Part shown: positions 9,933 to 15,796 of the stretch, piece after piece
How the letters are laid out: the number at the start of each line of letters is the position of its first letter
Position numbering within the stretch: position 1 is the stretch's first letter
Assembly: GCA_030037525.1 (NCBI GenBank)
Contig: JASHRC010000233.1
Location: 1-32,147, forward strand
Length of the DNA: 32,147 nucleotides
Source: Candidatus Acidiferrales bacterium
GTDB taxonomy: Bacteria; Acidobacteriota; Terriglobia; Acidiferrales; UBA7541
Direction of reading: 5' to 3'
Position numbers and translations under genes: made by a program
The notes under the pieces: generated by a model
What the model saw: only the letters and a program-made list of their open reading frames with translations
What the model was told of the DNA's origin: nothing
The model's database searches: none

Positions 9933-11063
9933 TTACGTCCATCCCAGGCAGAAAGCCAGCACGTAGAGACCACTAAGCGTCAAGGCCGGTCCGCCCCAGA
10001 TACAAAGCACGGATTTCCACGCCAGCGACTTGACCACTTCACGCTGGCTGCGCCAGGAAATCATGAAGGGGTTTCCCTCGGCTCCTTTGCCGAGGCAAAC
10101 CGATGGATTGGTGTCAAAGCCCGAGTTGCTCTGAGCGTCCAACGAAGGCTCGGGATCGGCTGCGGCGATGCCCGCAGAAGTTCTTGGTGAGGTGCTCGCT
10201 TGCGCTGGTGCTGCGGGTCTTTCCGCCGCAGAATTTTCGTCCATCGATACCCCCGACCACACCGAAACAGAGTTCGGTTTCCGAGTGGCCATAGCCTGAG
10301 CAACGGCAGGAATGGCGATCTCGCCGACGGTGCGATTGGAAAAGTTCACGTTCACCGCAGAGGTCAAGCCAAGCCCGCTGAACGCGCCTCCGCCGGAACC
10401 AAACAAACTCAATTTCCCACGCAGGGACGTTCCAGCTCCGACGTGCGGCACCGGAGCCCAAGTCAACGGGTCCCGATCGGCTGACAGCGTGCCGAAAACG
10501 AAGAGCGGATGATTGGGCTTGATCGCATACTCTTCCAGGCGCGTGCTGTGGTCGAAGCTGACGCCGTTGCGAGCCAGGAAACCCGCGACGTTTTCGGGAA
10601 GCACGTCGCGGTTGTGGGAAAAGAAGGACGTGTCGAACTCATCTTTGAAATTGCGTTCGATGTCGAAATCGGCCCCTTGCGGATCGATTAAAAGCTGGCC
10701 CGTGGGATCTTCCACGAAAAACGGCACGTATAGGCTTTCACTGGCGACCTGTTTCCATTCGCGATTGCGGCCGGACTGCCGCAGCTGCCAGGCCATCGCG
10801 CGATAGTAGTAGCAAGCCTCTCCGGTGATTCCGGCAGGAATTGTAGAGGGCCCCTTCGCTCTGCCGCTTATTTCGACCAATCCCATCGAAGCGCTGCGAA
10901 TCTTCGATGCCGGCGTGTTCATGATCAGCCGTTTGTACCGAAGCATCTGAAAGCCACGAATAAACAAAACCACGCCAACGACGGTCCCGATCGCAGCCGC
11001 AAATTCCAACTTGGCCGGATCGGTTCCGCGAACAGTCACAAGCGCGCTGGCGAGCAGATGCAT
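9933..11063 (-). CDS. GIDE-domain membrane protein (MUL1/E3 ligase-like domain, no RING)
   Basis: 376 residues. An N-terminal membrane helix (about 20-40) is followed by a GIDE-like domain (about 43-150). Its motifs are RLIMNTPASKIRSASMGLVE, the GEACYYYRAMAW segment and VPFFVEDPTGQLLIDPQGA. In the eukaryotic mitochondrial ligase MUL1 this domain sits before a RING finger. No cysteine-rich RING is visible here, so ligase activity is not implied. A low-complexity Ala/Pro/Ser stretch (about 280-310) precedes a C-terminal membrane segment (about 348-375). Function unknown; probably a membrane-associated partner of LemA, whose gene follows by 20 bases. The ATG start has only a distant GGGAG. Confidence 0.8.
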   Translation of the reverse strand: MHLLASALVTVRGTDPAKLEFAAAIGTVVGVVLFIRGFQMLRYKRLIMNTPASKIRSASMGLVEISGRAKGPSTIPAGITGEACYYYRAMAWQLRQSGRNREWKQVASESLYVPFFVEDPTGQLLIDPQGADFDIERNFKDEFDTSFFSHNRDVLPENVAGFLARNGVSFDHSTRLEEYAIKPNHPLFVFGTLSADRDPLTWAPVPHVGAGTSLRGKLSLFGSGGGAFSGLGLTSAVNVNFSNRTVGEIAIPAVAQAMATRKPNSVSVWSGVSMDENSAAERPAAPAQASTSPRTSAGIAAADPEPSLDAQSNSGFDTNPSVCLGKGAEGNPFMISWRSQREVVKSLAWKSVLCIWGGPALTLSGLYVLAFCLGWT

Positions 11064-11177: not shown

Positions 11178-13553
11178 TCAGGTGGGCATTCGGAAAATGA
11201 AGTAGATGGCCAGAAAACCGAAAATCGCGTCCGGCGCCCAACCGGCAATCAACGGCGGCAGCTGTCCCACCGAGCCCATCGCTTCAAACAGTGCCGCCGC
11301 AGACCAATAGGCGATTCCGACTCCAACCGCCAAGGCCAAACCTCCGATTGCACCTCGCGTGCCGACCAAAAACGCAAATGGCGCACTCAGGAATACGATC
11401 ACCGCGGCGATCAGCGGAAAGGCGAACTTCCTGTGCCACTGCACCGAGAGGCGCGCGGTATCGAAACCAGCTTGGCGCAGGCTGGCGATGTATTCACCGA
11501 GCTGGCGCCAGTTCATCTGGTAGTACTGACGAACCTCGCGCCGGAAGTAGCCGGGCGGTTCGGTCAATTCGGGAAGCGAGGTGGCGGTGAATGGCTGGTA
11601 CCGGGTGATGTGGCCGTCGCTATCGAAGTCGCGGACCCAGCCTCCTTCCAGCACCCAGGCATTTTCGGTTGGCTCCCAGACGGCGCGCGCGGCATATACG
11701 CGGCGGCGAATCAGAAAAGTTGCGGGATCGAGTTCGAACACATTCAAGCCGCCAAAGAAGCGTCGATCAGGATCGAAAAACTCGTAGTTATAAATCTTGC
11801 TGTTTTGGCCAAAGATCCACTGTCGAGCGGGTTCGATATAAGTCTGCGCGGGTCGGCCTTTGATCTGGTTCCGCAGCGCGTCCTGACGCTGATTCGCGTA
11901 GGGGAGAAAGGTATCGTCAAGCAGGAACATGCCCGCTGACACCAGGCAGCCTGCGAGCATCAGAGGCATCACTACACGGTACAAGCTGATCCCGCTGGCC
12001 TTGAGCGCGACGACTTCGTTGTTCTTGGCCAGGATCGCAAGAGTGACCAGCGTGGCCACGAGCGTGGCGAGCGGCGCCAACTGGTACACCATCAGCGGGA
12101 TGAGATACCGGAAATAGCTGAGCACGGTGGCTGCGGCAATGTGATTGCGGGCGATGTCGGCAAGCAAGTCAAACAGTGTGAAGGCATCAAAAATCAAGAC
12201 GAAGCCCGTAAGCAGGACCAGAAAAAAGTAGAAGAACTGCTTGAGAAGGTAGACGTCAAGAAGCATGGGGAAGGCCATGGTCCTGCCGATTTGCAGGGCT
12301 TGGCGAATCCGAGTAGGGGACAATACCGCCAGACGCGCTCCGTTCGTTTCGAGCGGGGTCGCACTCTCTGGGGCGGATCGGCGTTTCGACCACCACGATT
12401 CGATCCATTCCAGAATCCGATTCGGCCTGCGAATGTTTTCGACACGGCGGAAAAAAAACAGTCCCACCATGGCACCGATGATATTCGCCCCCCAGACTCC
12501 GACCCAAGGCAGGATGCGGCCTTGCACGGCGAAGTGGTCGCCAGAGACAAACAGGAAGTAGTAGCCGCCGATAAGAACAAGGGCCAGGACCAGACCGGCG
12601 GCGCGTCCGCCGCGGCGGGGACGCACCCCGATGGGCACACCGAGCAGCGCAAAAACCAGGCATGCGGCTGGAAACGCCATGCGCCGCTGCAGCTCGACGT
12701 GAGCGTCTCGCCATTGATTGCTGTGAATTGCAATCAGCGCGCTGACGCTTTGCTCGGCAGGCGGCGTGATGTCAACTCGCTCGGGAGCGGCCATCGCGGA
12801 AACGTCCACGGGAATATCGGTCTCGCCGAACGTCGTGACGTTGTACTGCGAGGGGAAGTGTGGGTCATATTCGTGAGTGTCTCCAACGCCCAGGTGAATA
12901 TCGATTTGCCCCCGAGCGGGCCCGGCGATCACCGCGGCATCTTCGGCGGTTGTTACCGCGGACGCCTCGGCCCGGTTGGGCGAGCCGGCCCCGATTAGGC
13001 CCGATGCGTTAGGGCCGCTCGAGGCCAGAAAAACGCCGCGCCACCGCGTGGCTGCGGCTTCCACGTCTTGCACGTATAATACGAACCGGGGAAAGCGCTC
13101 ATCAAAGACGCGTGGTTCGACCGAGAATCGCGCCTGCGAGGAAAGTAATTGAACTTCAAGCCGACGCACTGTGCGCAGCGAGGCCGGGCTGAGCCAGAAG
13201 GTGGTGAGCAGCGTGCCGGCCGAAGCCGCCACCGCTACGACGCCAATCGGCACGAGCAACCGCCGCAGGCTGACGCCCGAGGCATGTAGGGCGACGATTT
13301 CGCTGTCGGCGGACAAACGTCCCAGGCCGATCAGAACGCCTACAAGCACCGCCATCGGAAGGGTGAAGCCAAGAACGGGGGGGAGCGCACAAACAAACAG
13401 CAATGCCACGCTCCCCGTGCTGCCTGCGTGGCGAACGATCAATTCCATCAGCTGAACGAGCCGCGGCACGAAGAAAACGAAGGTGAAGACCACCAGACCA
13501 AGGGCGGCATGGGAGACCACTTCGCGGGCAACGTATCGATCAAGCAGGCGCAT
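11178..13553 (-). CDS. LptF-LptG fusion, LPS export permease in one chain
   Basis: 791-residue protein made of two complete YjgP/YjgQ (LptF/LptG) halves. In other bacteria these are separate permease subunits of the LptB2FG transporter, which lifts LPS from the inner membrane to the LptC/A bridge. Half one (about 1-390) has membrane helices, a periplasmic jellyroll and three more helices. Half two starts near FPMLLDVYLLKQ (about 430) and repeats that layout. Each half has the coupling-helix motif that meets LptB: SEIVALHASGVSLRRL (84-99) and NEVVALKASGISLYRV (from 512). The linker (about 395-428) is polar and looks flexible. No lptA, B or C is in the window. A TAGAAT box lies 15 bases before the ATG and no Shine-Dalgarno is visible. 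Confidence 0.93.
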   Translation of the reverse strand: MRLLDRYVAREVVSHAALGLVVFTFVFFVPRLVQLMELIVRHAGSTGSVALLFVCALPPVLGFTLPMAVLVGVLIGLGRLSADSEIVALHASGVSLRRLLVPIGVVAVAASAGTLLTTFWLSPASLRTVRRLEVQLLSSQARFSVEPRVFDERFPRFVLYVQDVEAAATRWRGVFLASSGPNASGLIGAGSPNRAEASAVTTAEDAAVIAGPARGQIDIHLGVGDTHEYDPHFPSQYNVTTFGETDIPVDVSAMAAPERVDITPPAEQSVSALIAIHSNQWRDAHVELQRRMAFPAACLVFALLGVPIGVRPRRGGRAAGLVLALVLIGGYYFLFVSGDHFAVQGRILPWVGVWGANIIGAMVGLFFFRRVENIRRPNRILEWIESWWSKRRSAPESATPLETNGARLAVLSPTRIRQALQIGRTMAFPMLLDVYLLKQFFYFFLVLLTGFVLIFDAFTLFDLLADIARNHIAAATVLSYFRYLIPLMVYQLAPLATLVATLVTLAILAKNNEVVALKASGISLYRVVMPLMLAGCLVSAGMFLLDDTFLPYANQRQDALRNQIKGRPAQTYIEPARQWIFGQNSKIYNYEFFDPDRRFFGGLNVFELDPATFLIRRRVYAARAVWEPTENAWVLEGGWVRDFDSDGHITRYQPFTATSLPELTEPPGYFRREVRQYYQMNWRQLGEYIASLRQAGFDTARLSVQWHRKFAFPLIAAVIVFLSAPFAFLVGTRGAIGGLALAVGVGIAYWSAAALFEAMGSVGQLPPLIAGWAPDAIFGFLAIYFIFRMPT

Positions 13554-13591: not shown

Positions 13592-15796
13592 TTGAGCCGC
13601 GTAAACCTCGTCATTTTATGGCACATGCATCAGCCGCAATACCGCGATCCCACTACGGGCCGCTACCTACTGCCTTGGACGCGTCTCCATGCGCTAAAAG
13701 ACTACTGGGGAATGGTGAAAACTCTGCAGGAGTTTCCGGGGATCCACGCGACCTTTAATGTTGTGCCGTCGCTGGCTGAGCAAATTCAGGAATACGCGAG
13801 CGGACAGTTTCAAGAGAGTTGGTTCGAGATCGCGTTTACTCCCGCAGAAAAACTTGGCCCCGATGCCAAGCGGGAAGCCATCGAACGTGCCTTTCAAGTG
13901 AACGAGAATTTCCTGCGGCGCTGGCCGCGTTTCGGAGAGCTCGCTTCTCAGGTGCGTTCGGGCGGTGCAGAGGCCTCGGTGGCCCAATGGAGCACCCGGG
14001 ACTGGCGTGATTTGCAGGTGCTCTCGCAGCTGGCTTGGATGGATGAGGAGTATCTCAGCGCGGATCCGTCGCTCAAAGCCTTGTCCAATCGGGCAGAAGG
14101 CTTCACCGAAGAAGACAAAGCCTTGCTGAAAGACAAACAGCGGGAGCTCTTGGCCGCCGTTCTGCCGGAGTACCGCCTGGCTGCGGCCCGCGGGCAAATC
14201 GAGATCTCCACGACCCCCTACTACCACCCCATTCTGCCTCTGCTCTGTGACACGGATATCGCGCGCGTTTCCAATCCGCACACGCCTGTCCCGCAGCCTC
14301 CCTTTCGATACCCCGAGGATGCCCGGGAGCAACTGGTCCGCGCCAGGCAGTTCCACCAGCGACTGTTCGGACAGCCGCCCGCAGGTTTCTGGCCCTCGGA
14401 AGGCTCCGTCTCAGAGGAAGCATTGCAGATTGCCGCGGACCTGGGCTTCCGGTGGTTTGCAACCGACGAGGGGGTGCTGGGACGCACCCGGAACGTGGGA
14501 TTCTGGCGCGACGCCTCGGGCTATCCGGAGAACGGGCGGGATTTGTACAAGCCGTGGCGGGTGAAGTGCGGGGCGCGAGAAATGTACGGTCTTTTCCGCG
14601 ATCATTACCTCTCCGACCTGGTGGGCTTTGTCTATAGCCGCATGAGCGCAGAAGCGGCTGCGGAAGACCTGCACAGGCGCCTTCGCGGAATTGGAGAGCG
14701 CGCCAACGGCGAGATCGCAACGGTGAGTCTGATTCTGGACGGCGAAAACGCGTGGGAATACTACCCGGAAAACGGGAGAGAGTTTCTACGTAACTTCTAC
14801 GGGCGCATCGAACGCGATCCGGAGATTTGCCCGCTCACTGTCAGCGAGGCCATCCAGGCAGCGGCCGATGCCCCCTTGCTCGAGACGATTTTCCCAGCTT
14901 CGTGGATCAATGCCAATTTTGACGTTTGGATCGGGCACGCCGAAGACGTGCGCGCCTGGGAATTGCTGCGCGACGCCAGGGACGCGTTCGAGCGCGCCAA
15001 GAAAAGCCAGGTGCACGGGGGGATATCCAGGCTCGACGAAGCCACCTTTGTGGGACAGCGCGTGTACGACGCGGTGCTGGCAGCCGAAGGCAGCGACTGG
15101 TGCTGGTGGTTTGGACCCGAACATGGTTCGGCAAACGATGCGGAGTTCGATGCGCTCTATCGACGGCATCTCACGGAAATCTATAATGCGCTCGGCGAAC
15201 CCGCACCCGCCGCTCTTTCGCTTCCGATCAAACGCGCGCCGGAGCGTGGGCGCCGCGAACCGCCCTCGGCCTATCTAAACGTAATGGTCGACGGACGGGA
15301 GAGCACCTATTTCGAATGGCTGGGCGCAGGACTGTTTGCCACCGATCGCCGCAGCGGCACCATGCATGGTCGGCGCAGCGTGCTCGGCGAGCTCTACTAC
15401 GGCTTTGGTCCCAAGCATTTCTGGCTGTGTGTCGATCCGCTCCCGGAAGCGGTCGACGAACTGGGGGACTTTCAGGTTCGTATCGCCATGTGGGACTCGC
15501 GAGAAACACGCGTCACGCTCGGGGTCCACGACGGAAAGCTCCGCGAGTGCGTGGTCGAAAACGCCGGCCTTTGTTTGTTGCGCCCGGAAACATTCCTCTC
15601 TGCCGCGTACGGCAACATCCTGGAAGTGGGTATCTCGCGGGAGCTTTTCGATTTGACGGGCCGCAAGGGTTTACTCCTGAATGTAGCGATCTGGCAGGCA
15701 GGTTTGCCGGTCGATGTCCTGCCGCTGGAAGGAATGCTCGAAGTGGCGCTCGGCGAAGAGAACTTCGCTTGGCCCTCCGATCAACCTTCCTCTTGA
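13592..15796 (+). CDS. Glycoside hydrolase family 57 protein
   Basis: 734-residue GH57 enzyme; the family includes alpha-amylases, 4-alpha-glucanotransferases and branching enzymes acting on alpha-glucans such as glycogen. The first GH57 motif HMHQP is at 11-15. GFWPSEGSVS places the expected nucleophile at Glu270, and WFATDEG places the expected acid/base at Asp292. DGENAWEYYPENG lies near 395. No signal peptide, so probably cytoplasmic. The start is TTG at 13592: GGGAG sits 7 bases upstream and the motif-rich N-terminus begins at once; no ATG is available before motif 1. The C-terminal third (beyond about 560) looks like a beta-rich accessory domain. Exact specificity cannot be read. Divergent from lptFG. 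Confidence 0.92.
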   Translation: MSRVNLVILWHMHQPQYRDPTTGRYLLPWTRLHALKDYWGMVKTLQEFPGIHATFNVVPSLAEQIQEYASGQFQESWFEIAFTPAEKLGPDAKREAIERAFQVNENFLRRWPRFGELASQVRSGGAEASVAQWSTRDWRDLQVLSQLAWMDEEYLSADPSLKALSNRAEGFTEEDKALLKDKQRELLAAVLPEYRLAAARGQIEISTTPYYHPILPLLCDTDIARVSNPHTPVPQPPFRYPEDAREQLVRARQFHQRLFGQPPAGFWPSEGSVSEEALQIAADLGFRWFATDEGVLGRTRNVGFWRDASGYPENGRDLYKPWRVKCGAREMYGLFRDHYLSDLVGFVYSRMSAEAAAEDLHRRLRGIGERANGEIATVSLILDGENAWEYYPENGREFLRNFYGRIERDPEICPLTVSEAIQAAADAPLLETIFPASWINANFDVWIGHAEDVRAWELLRDARDAFERAKKSQVHGGISRLDEATFVGQRVYDAVLAAEGSDWCWWFGPEHGSANDAEFDALYRRHLTEIYNALGEPAPAALSLPIKRAPERGRREPPSAYLNVMVDGRESTYFEWLGAGLFATDRRSGTMHGRRSVLGELYYGFGPKHFWLCVDPLPEAVDELGDFQVRIAMWDSRETRVTLGVHDGKLRECVVENAGLCLLRPETFLSAAYGNILEVGISRELFDLTGRKGLLLNVAIWQAGLPVDVLPLEGMLEVALGEENFAWPSDQPSS

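What the first reader, a model, noticed from the sequence alone, without database searches (positions are those of the whole stretch)
11178..13553. LptF and LptG joined in one 791-residue permease
LPS exporters normally use two separate half-permeases. Here two complete halves, each with its own coupling-helix motif (SEIVALHASG and NEVVALKASG), lie in one frame joined by a polar linker. A fused chain fixes the F:G ratio and forces a single topology; half one would need its C-terminus in the cytosol for half two to insert normally. I recall similar long LptF/LptG proteins in Acidobacteria, so it may be a lineage trait rather than new, but it is little studied.
Basis: partly seen in the sequence, partly recalled or inferred. 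Interest (0 to 1): 0.55.

Follow-up and report, generated by a model that had tools for sequence, protein, structure and literature searches.

The report
Fused LptF-LptG lipopolysaccharide export permease
Soil bacteria of the phylum Acidobacteriota carry the membrane part of their lipopolysaccharide exporter as one protein instead of two, and in this genome the exporter's anchor and bridge proteins are fused as well, which may explain why a published survey thought two of the genes were missing.

Summary
Confirmed. Window 11178-13553 (minus strand) is one uninterrupted 791-residue frame: an LptF half (3-369), a basic linker (about 374-430) and an LptG half (432-788). NCBIfam profiles favour each half's namesake by about 100 bits. 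An AlphaFold2 model (pLDDT 88.8, pTM 0.84) matches solved LptF and LptG chains half by half. No other PF03739 match was found in this genome. Of 238 phylum genomes whose frames I read, 223 have one frame long enough for, or shown to hold, both halves; none had a separate pair as its only copy. Named relatives are Acidobacteriota. A 2022 survey (PMC8871954) called lptF and lptG "apparently lacking" there. Outside the window, LptC and LptA form one 787-residue chain directly upstream of lptB, modelled as a membrane anchor plus one long beta-slide. Ten searches of an open-licence library gave no description of either fusion. It most likely works as ordinary LptB2FG; nothing was tested experimentally, and LptD was not found in this genome. 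A new variant of a known kind.

The parts
11178..13553 (-). lptFG: one 791-aa chain, fused LPS-export permease
12447..13547 (-). LptF half (residues 3-369)
   Evidence: TIGR04407; aligns to LptF chains of LptB2FG structures, e.g. 9dok_F Z 24.8, rmsd 5.6, 360 aligned
13275..13304 (-). coupling-helix motif 1, SEIVALHASG (residues 84-93; E85)
   Evidence: helix 85-91 in the model; E at 85 in 69 of 70 aligned proteins
12804..13085 (-). periplasmic beta domain of the LptF half (strands within residues 157-250)
12264..12434 (-). linker between the halves (residues 374-430), basic, poorly conserved, partly under pLDDT 50
11190..12260 (-). LptG half (residues 432-788)
   Evidence: TIGR04408; aligns to LptG chains, e.g. 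6mjp_G Z 27.3, rmsd 4.1, 353 aligned
11991..12020 (-). coupling-helix motif 2, NEVVALKASG (residues 512-521; E513)
   Evidence: helix 513-519 in the model; E at 513 in 66 of 70 aligned proteins
11574..11822 (-). periplasmic beta domain of the LptG half (strands within residues 578-660)

Best explanation
The gene encodes the whole transmembrane part of the lipopolysaccharide (LPS) extractor LptB2FG as one chain. The LptF and LptG halves fold against each other as in the two-chain complex, each with three membrane helices, a periplasmic beta-jellyroll and three more helices. Two LptB ATPases dock on the two coupling helices. [quoted passage not shown] The fusion arose before or near the base of Acidobacteriota, most simply by a small indel at an overlapping lptF stop / lptG start of the kind seen in E. 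coli, and has been inherited vertically. Shown by computation: the anatomy, the recurrence, the matching fold, the presence of LptB, LptC and LptA parts. Inferred: complex assembly, transport, substrate, a single origin (no tree was built) and the route of the fusion.
For: Domain order and profile preference. AF2 model pLDDT 88.8, pTM 0.84, with both halves matching chains of LptB2FG entries. Coupling glutamates at 85 and 513 in 69 and 66 of 70 aligned proteins; the E. coli equivalents E84/E88 are needed for LPS transport (PMC5082905, passages). Their LptB groove partner F90-R91 is kept in this genome's LptB, which is 57% identical to E. coli LptB and the only one of 41 matches over the LptB cut-off. 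No PF03739 match elsewhere in the genome. Phylum: of 297 sampled genomes 295 match. Of 238 whose frames I read, 223 have a single frame of 679 aa or more bearing PF03739, 12 are cut by a contig end, 1 holds only a remnant (G263), 2 have no match. Linker positive in 70 of 70. E. coli lptF and lptG overlap by 1 nt in the same order.
Against: No experiment. Each half alone is just under the NCBIfam equivalog cut-off. Other comparisons do not separate F from G: half two is 21.8% identical to E. coli LptG and 22.5% to LptF; several LptG chains match best in half one by phmmer; and in the structure list 6s8g_F and 6mi8_F align to half two and 7efo_G to half one. LptD (PF04453) was not found in this genome, though 102 of 149 phylum genomes have it. 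Three E. coli LptG TM1 lysines (K34, K40, K41; an LPS-contact role is recalled, not from a call) align to T459, A465 and D466, and LptF R212 to E228 in a poorly aligned stretch. LptB was not co-folded. An Lpt apparatus need not carry LPS: T. pallidum is reported to use one for another substrate (PMC8407342, passages).
Confidence: 0.9

Rival explanations
1. The chain is made fused but is cut in the linker by a protease, so the working complex is again two separate chains.
For: The linker is the least conserved part (mean majority fraction 0.20 against 0.42 and 0.47 in the halves), varies from 26 to 85 residues in 70 aligned proteins, and is partly below pLDDT 50.
Against: A weakly conserved linker offers no evident shared cleavage site (none was searched for), and the fused frame recurs across the phylum.
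Confidence: 0.07
2. Fused chains pair in trans: the F half of one chain packs with the G half of another, giving higher-order LptB4(FG)2 assemblies.
For: Nothing direct; long linkers would allow it.
Against: The single-chain model is confident as one unit (pTM 0.84).
Confidence: 0.05
3. The fusion is an assembly error or frameshift artefact.
For: The genome is a draft in 286 contigs.
Against: A frame long enough for both halves occurs in 223 of 238 genomes read, including genomes listed as one contig.
Confidence: 0.005
4. The fused protein exports another envelope lipid or glycolipid rather than LPS, with LptB2FG-like mechanics.
For: E. coli LptG TM1 lysines are not kept; LptD not found in this genome; T. 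pallidum is reported to use an Lpt apparatus for a substrate other than LPS (PMC8407342, passages).
Against: LptB, LptC and LptA parts are present, LptD is found in 102 of 149 phylum genomes, PMC8871954 classes Acidobacteria as true LPS diderms, and most LPS-contacting residues also differ between E. coli and Acinetobacter LptFG (PMC10794137, passage).
Confidence: 0.07

Closest known systems
LptB2FG / LptB2FGC LPS exporter (solved structures such as 6mjp, 6mit, 9dok, 8ufg)
   Same: Two halves of the same fold with coupling helices, in the order F then G; an LptB with the same groove residues.
   Different: F and G are one polypeptide joined by a basic linker (26-85 residues in 70 aligned proteins); LptC and LptA are also one polypeptide in this genome.
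E. coli lptC-lptA-lptB-rpoN-hpf-ptsN-rapZ gene cluster
   Same: Gene order: here lptCA-lptB-rpoN-rapZ.
   Different: lptC and lptA, which overlap by 32 nt in E. coli, are one 787-aa frame here; rpoN and rapZ are 10 bases apart, without hpf and ptsN between them.
Single LptF/G homologue of diderm Firmicutes (PMC5007114)
   Same: One gene for the permease.
   Different: There a single homologue of LptF/G is reported (passage); here one gene holds two distinct halves.
LetAB, described as a single-polypeptide tunnel between the membranes
   Same: A one-chain bridge, as PMC8727689 describes for LetAB (passage), resembles the LptC-A chain in principle.
   Different: LetAB was not compared here; that it is unrelated is recalled.

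Membership tests
LptF/LptG permease family (PF03739) | Over the Pfam gathering score | tested here: met
   Two domains, 266.8 and 246.9 bits against 27.9
LptF (TIGR04407) and LptG (TIGR04408) equivalogs | Curated NCBIfam cut-off | tested here: inconclusive
   Whole chain passes both; halves alone 212.9 of 230 and 221.2 of 240; each prefers its namesake by about 95-101 bits, but pairwise identity to E. coli does not separate them
LptB2FG exporter | Six membrane helices and a periplasmic beta domain per half | tested here: met
   Model: 3 long helices, a run of strands, 3 long helices in each half
LptB2FG exporter | Fold of solved LptF and LptG chains | tested here: met
   6mjp_G Z 27.3, rmsd 4.1, 353 aligned; 9dok_F Z 24.8, rmsd 5.6, 360 aligned
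LptB2FG exporter | Coupling-helix glutamates (E84/E88 in E. coli) | tested here: met
   E85 and E513; 69 and 66 of 70 aligned proteins
LptB2FG exporter | A dedicated LptB | tested here: met
   One locus at 354.1 bits, cut-off 240; F90-R91 kept
LptB2FG exporter | Separate lptF and lptG genes | tested here: not met
   One frame; no other PF03739 match in the genome. This is the usual architecture rather than a mechanistic requirement; filed as a variant
LptB2FG exporter | ATP-driven LPS extraction | not testable with these tools
   Needs reconstitution
LptC and LptA (for the second fusion) | Sequence and fold | tested here: met
   PF06835 res 40-216 and PF03968 res 653-763, both over cut-off; res 68-233 match LptC 6mit_C Z 17.6, rmsd 3.0, 150 aligned, and res 647-781 match LptA 2r19_B Z 11.7, rmsd 2.6, 120 aligned. 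Against: TIGR03002 LptA 57.9 is under its cut-off 71.7, while TIGR04409 LptC 43.4 is over 38
Complete Lpt pathway | LptD outer-membrane translocon | tested here: inconclusive
   PF04453 not found in this 93% complete genome; found in 102 of 149 phylum genomes

The most novel reading that the evidence does not exclude
Acidobacteriota run a condensed Lpt machine of three inner-membrane and bridge chains: LptB, LptFG, and a membrane-anchored LptC-LptA chain that forms the whole periplasmic bridge as one beta-slide of genetically fixed length, so that bridge stoichiometry and reach are set by one gene rather than by LptA polymerisation.
Probability: 0.5. Interest if true: 0.72.

Novelty: new variant of a known kind. 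Interest (0 to 1): 0.52.

Why it matters
The fusion suggests that LPS extraction can be kept over a whole phylum with F and G tied together, and gives a natural single-chain template for structural work on LptFG. It bears on a survey that used HMM profiles to infer the history of the outer membrane and reported lptF and lptG as apparently lacking in Acidobacteria (PMC8871954, section 3.4 read). [quoted passage not shown] A one-chain bridge would fix that number and make it testable.

Tried and rejected
Separate lptF or lptG elsewhere in the genome: none found. Half-only genomes in the phylum as evidence of a split: 12 of the 238 read are cut by a contig end, namely G317, G165, G252, G131, G257, G121, G254, G235, G316, G214, G247 and G186 (for places at contig ends, for contig lengths, for frames running off); G317 and G247 still span the junction. 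G263 holds only the last third of the profile in a 413-aa frame away from any contig end; left unexplained. G179 has the fused gene and also two adjacent separate frames on a 16-kb contig, 44% GC over the 7 kb read against 59% at the fused locus; I read this as contamination or transfer, not as a split. G019 is fused, but its frame breaks inside the LptG half.

How the 223 were counted: 110 by a PF03739 row in a frame of 756 aa or more in the capped list (for some only one half's row is listed), 33 more with both halves' rows in one frame, 78 of 80 with a profile of the fused protein, and G000 and G034. The other 59 of the 297 were not read. In one search I left out 59 of 139 remaining handles, mostly further members of a genus already kept or seen.

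Weak-scoring family f32, first suspected of lacking the fusion, proved fused in 10 of the 11 members searched; G316 is cut.

Fusions outside Acidobacteriota: not tested on a sample. The plasmid collection gave 5 records, none covering 80% of the query; the best, a 2.1-Mb Fusobacterium vincentii record, has two adjacent frames of 359 and 363 aa overlapping by 1 nt. E. coli has separate genes, and T. pallidum is reported with separate LptF/G and LptC/A genes (PMC8407342, passages).

LptC in the phylum: PF06835 matched 121 of 197 genomes. I dropped 3 whose match lies in an LptD-like frame (G153, G157, G179). Of the other 118, 115 frames are 540 aa or longer (3 of these over 900) and 3 are shorter (G151, G076, G181). 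Frame length alone does not show an LptA part. The 76 genomes without a match may be divergent or lack it. Of 20 stretches fetched, one was a 100-base dud (L137); of the 19 usable ones one is the LptD-like frame of G153 (L136), and 17 of the 19 hold lptB (not L125 or L136).

Literature: ten searches of an open-licence PMC library gave no description of either fusion. I saw passages of ten papers, one section in full, and only listings of the rest. PMC7989815 (passages) reports lptFG reads in most dominant soil families, so lptF/G in acidobacteria may have been seen in metagenomes.

Full report
The minus-strand frame 11178..13553 reads 791 residues without a stop. It holds two PF03739 domains. 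NCBIfam places LptF best at residues 3-369 and LptG at 432-788. When the two halves are scanned apart, half one scores 212.9 for LptF and 117.7 for LptG, and half two 221.2 for LptG and 120.4 for LptF. The profiles therefore separate the halves clearly, but each alone falls just short of NCBI's curated cut-off (230 and 240). Simple identity does not separate them: half two is 21.8% identical to E. coli LptG and 22.5% to LptF, and phmmer places several LptG chains on half one.

The AlphaFold2 model built on an alignment of 70 proteins is confident (mean pLDDT 88.8, pTM 0.84). Each half shows three long helices, a run of strands and three long helices, with short coupling helices at 85-91 and 513-519. 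Against solved structures, residues 428-790 align to LptG (6mjp_G, Z 27.3, rmsd 4.1, 353 aligned) and residues 2-383 to LptF (9dok_F, Z 24.8, rmsd 5.6, 360 aligned); a few rows are crossed, such as 6s8g_F on half two and 7efo_G on half one. The two coupling glutamates are kept in 69 and 66 of the 70; in E. coli they are needed for LPS transport (PMC5082905, passages). This genome's LptB is 57% identical to that of E. coli and keeps the F90-R91 pair that meets those helices.

The linker (about residues 374-430) is variable in length (26-85, median 50.5), poorly conserved and net positive in all 70. With six helices per half, both ends of a half face the same side, so the linker can lie in the cytosol with no extra helix.

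The fusion is a trait of the phylum. The one named scan found 245 relatives and kept the best 80: 79 carry acidobacterial names and one is titled Betaproteobacteria (L166), probably a label error; two of the 80 (L159, L195) are cut by a contig end. In the sample of 297 phylum genomes, 295 have a PF03739 match. I read frames for 238 of them: 223 have a single frame of 679 aa or more bearing PF03739, 12 are cut by a contig end, G263 has only a remnant, and G068 and G289 have no match. For part of the 110 taken from the capped list, both halves are inferred from the frame length. The other 59 were not read. In the own genome plus 40 relatives, 33 have both halves in one frame, G019 is fused with a broken second half, G007 and G036 are cut by a contig end and five have no match.

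How the fusion may have arisen: E. coli lptF and lptG overlap by one base in the same order, as do two adjacent frames in Fusobacterium vincentii that tblastn matched to the query. A small indel there would join the frames. This is inference; no tree was built.

Other parts of the machine: the genome has one LptB over the cut-off, on contig 151. Directly upstream is a 787-residue frame (L109:3735-6098) with an LptC domain at 40-216 and an LptA/LptD_N domain at 653-763. It holds the only LptC and LptA-type matches found in the genome. Downstream lie rpoN and rapZ, the order of E. coli lptC-lptA-lptB-rpoN-...-rapZ, where lptC and lptA overlap by 32 bases. The model of this chain (pLDDT 84.8, pTM 0.70) is one long helix at 22-60 followed by 49 strand elements (counted) with one very short helix among them. 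Its start matches LptC (6mit_C, Z 17.6, rmsd 3.0, 150 aligned) and its end LptA (2r19_B, Z 11.7, rmsd 2.6, 120 aligned). Of 34 aligned proteins, chosen for likeness to this one, 34 match LptD_N and 33 LptC. A class-wide search found it in 77 of 81 genomes, own included; phylum-wide, 121 of 197 genomes have an LptC match and 115 of the 118 kept frames are 540 aa or longer. So both gene pairs that overlap in E. coli are fused here.

LptD was not found in this genome, but 102 of 149 phylum genomes have it. The genome is rated 93% complete, so this may be a gap or a divergent copy.

What is known: PMC8871954 (section 3.4 read) says lptF and lptG are apparently lacking in Acidobacteria. The present data contradict this for the genomes seen here, and the fusion together with the sub-cut-off halves is a plausible cause of the miss; I did not rerun their search. 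Ten literature searches gave no description of either fusion, within an open-licence library and mostly from listings. PMC10094684 (figure legend passage) calls the number of LptA oligomers in the bridge unknown.

Verdict: a real, conserved, phylum-wide architectural variant of a well-known machine, working most likely as ordinary LptB2FG. By itself it is of moderate interest. With the LptC-LptA fusion it suggests a three-chain Lpt machine with a bridge of fixed length, which is the bolder and testable reading.

Noticed in passing
L109:3735-6098 (G000 contig 151): LptC-LptA fusion, 787 aa, directly upstream of lptB, rpoN and rapZ; modelled as a membrane anchor plus one long beta-slide; widespread in the phylum.
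   Followed up: yes
G000, whole genome: No LptD (PF04453) found in the window's own genome although 102 of 149 phylum genomes have one.
   Followed up: partly
L252:3670-5807 (G179 contig 21): Two adjacent separate lptF- and lptG-like frames in an assembly that also has the fused gene, on a short contig of lower GC; contamination or transfer.
   Followed up: partly
L166 (CAJCHZ010000039.1): A record titled Betaproteobacteria carries the fused gene at 53% identity; probably a mislabelled genome.
   Followed up: no
window 9933-11063, minus strand: A 376-aa protein with a GIDE (E3 ubiquitin ligase, PF12483) domain lies just downstream of lptFG on the same strand.
   Followed up: no
window 13592-15796, plus strand: A glycoside hydrolase family 57 protein is divergent from lptFG; the listed frames start only 38 bases apart.
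   Followed up: no
several phylum genomes, e.g. G211, G053, G225, G067: In 18 genomes picked by eye because lptFG and the LptC match share a contig, 15 pairs lie about 13-25 kb apart, hinting at a loose lpt region. In the window's genome the two lie on different contigs (C40 and C151), so their distance is unknown.
   Followed up: partly
L092 (G263 contig 48): Only the last third of the PF03739 profile, in a 413-aa frame away from any contig end; a decayed or very divergent permease.
   Followed up: partly
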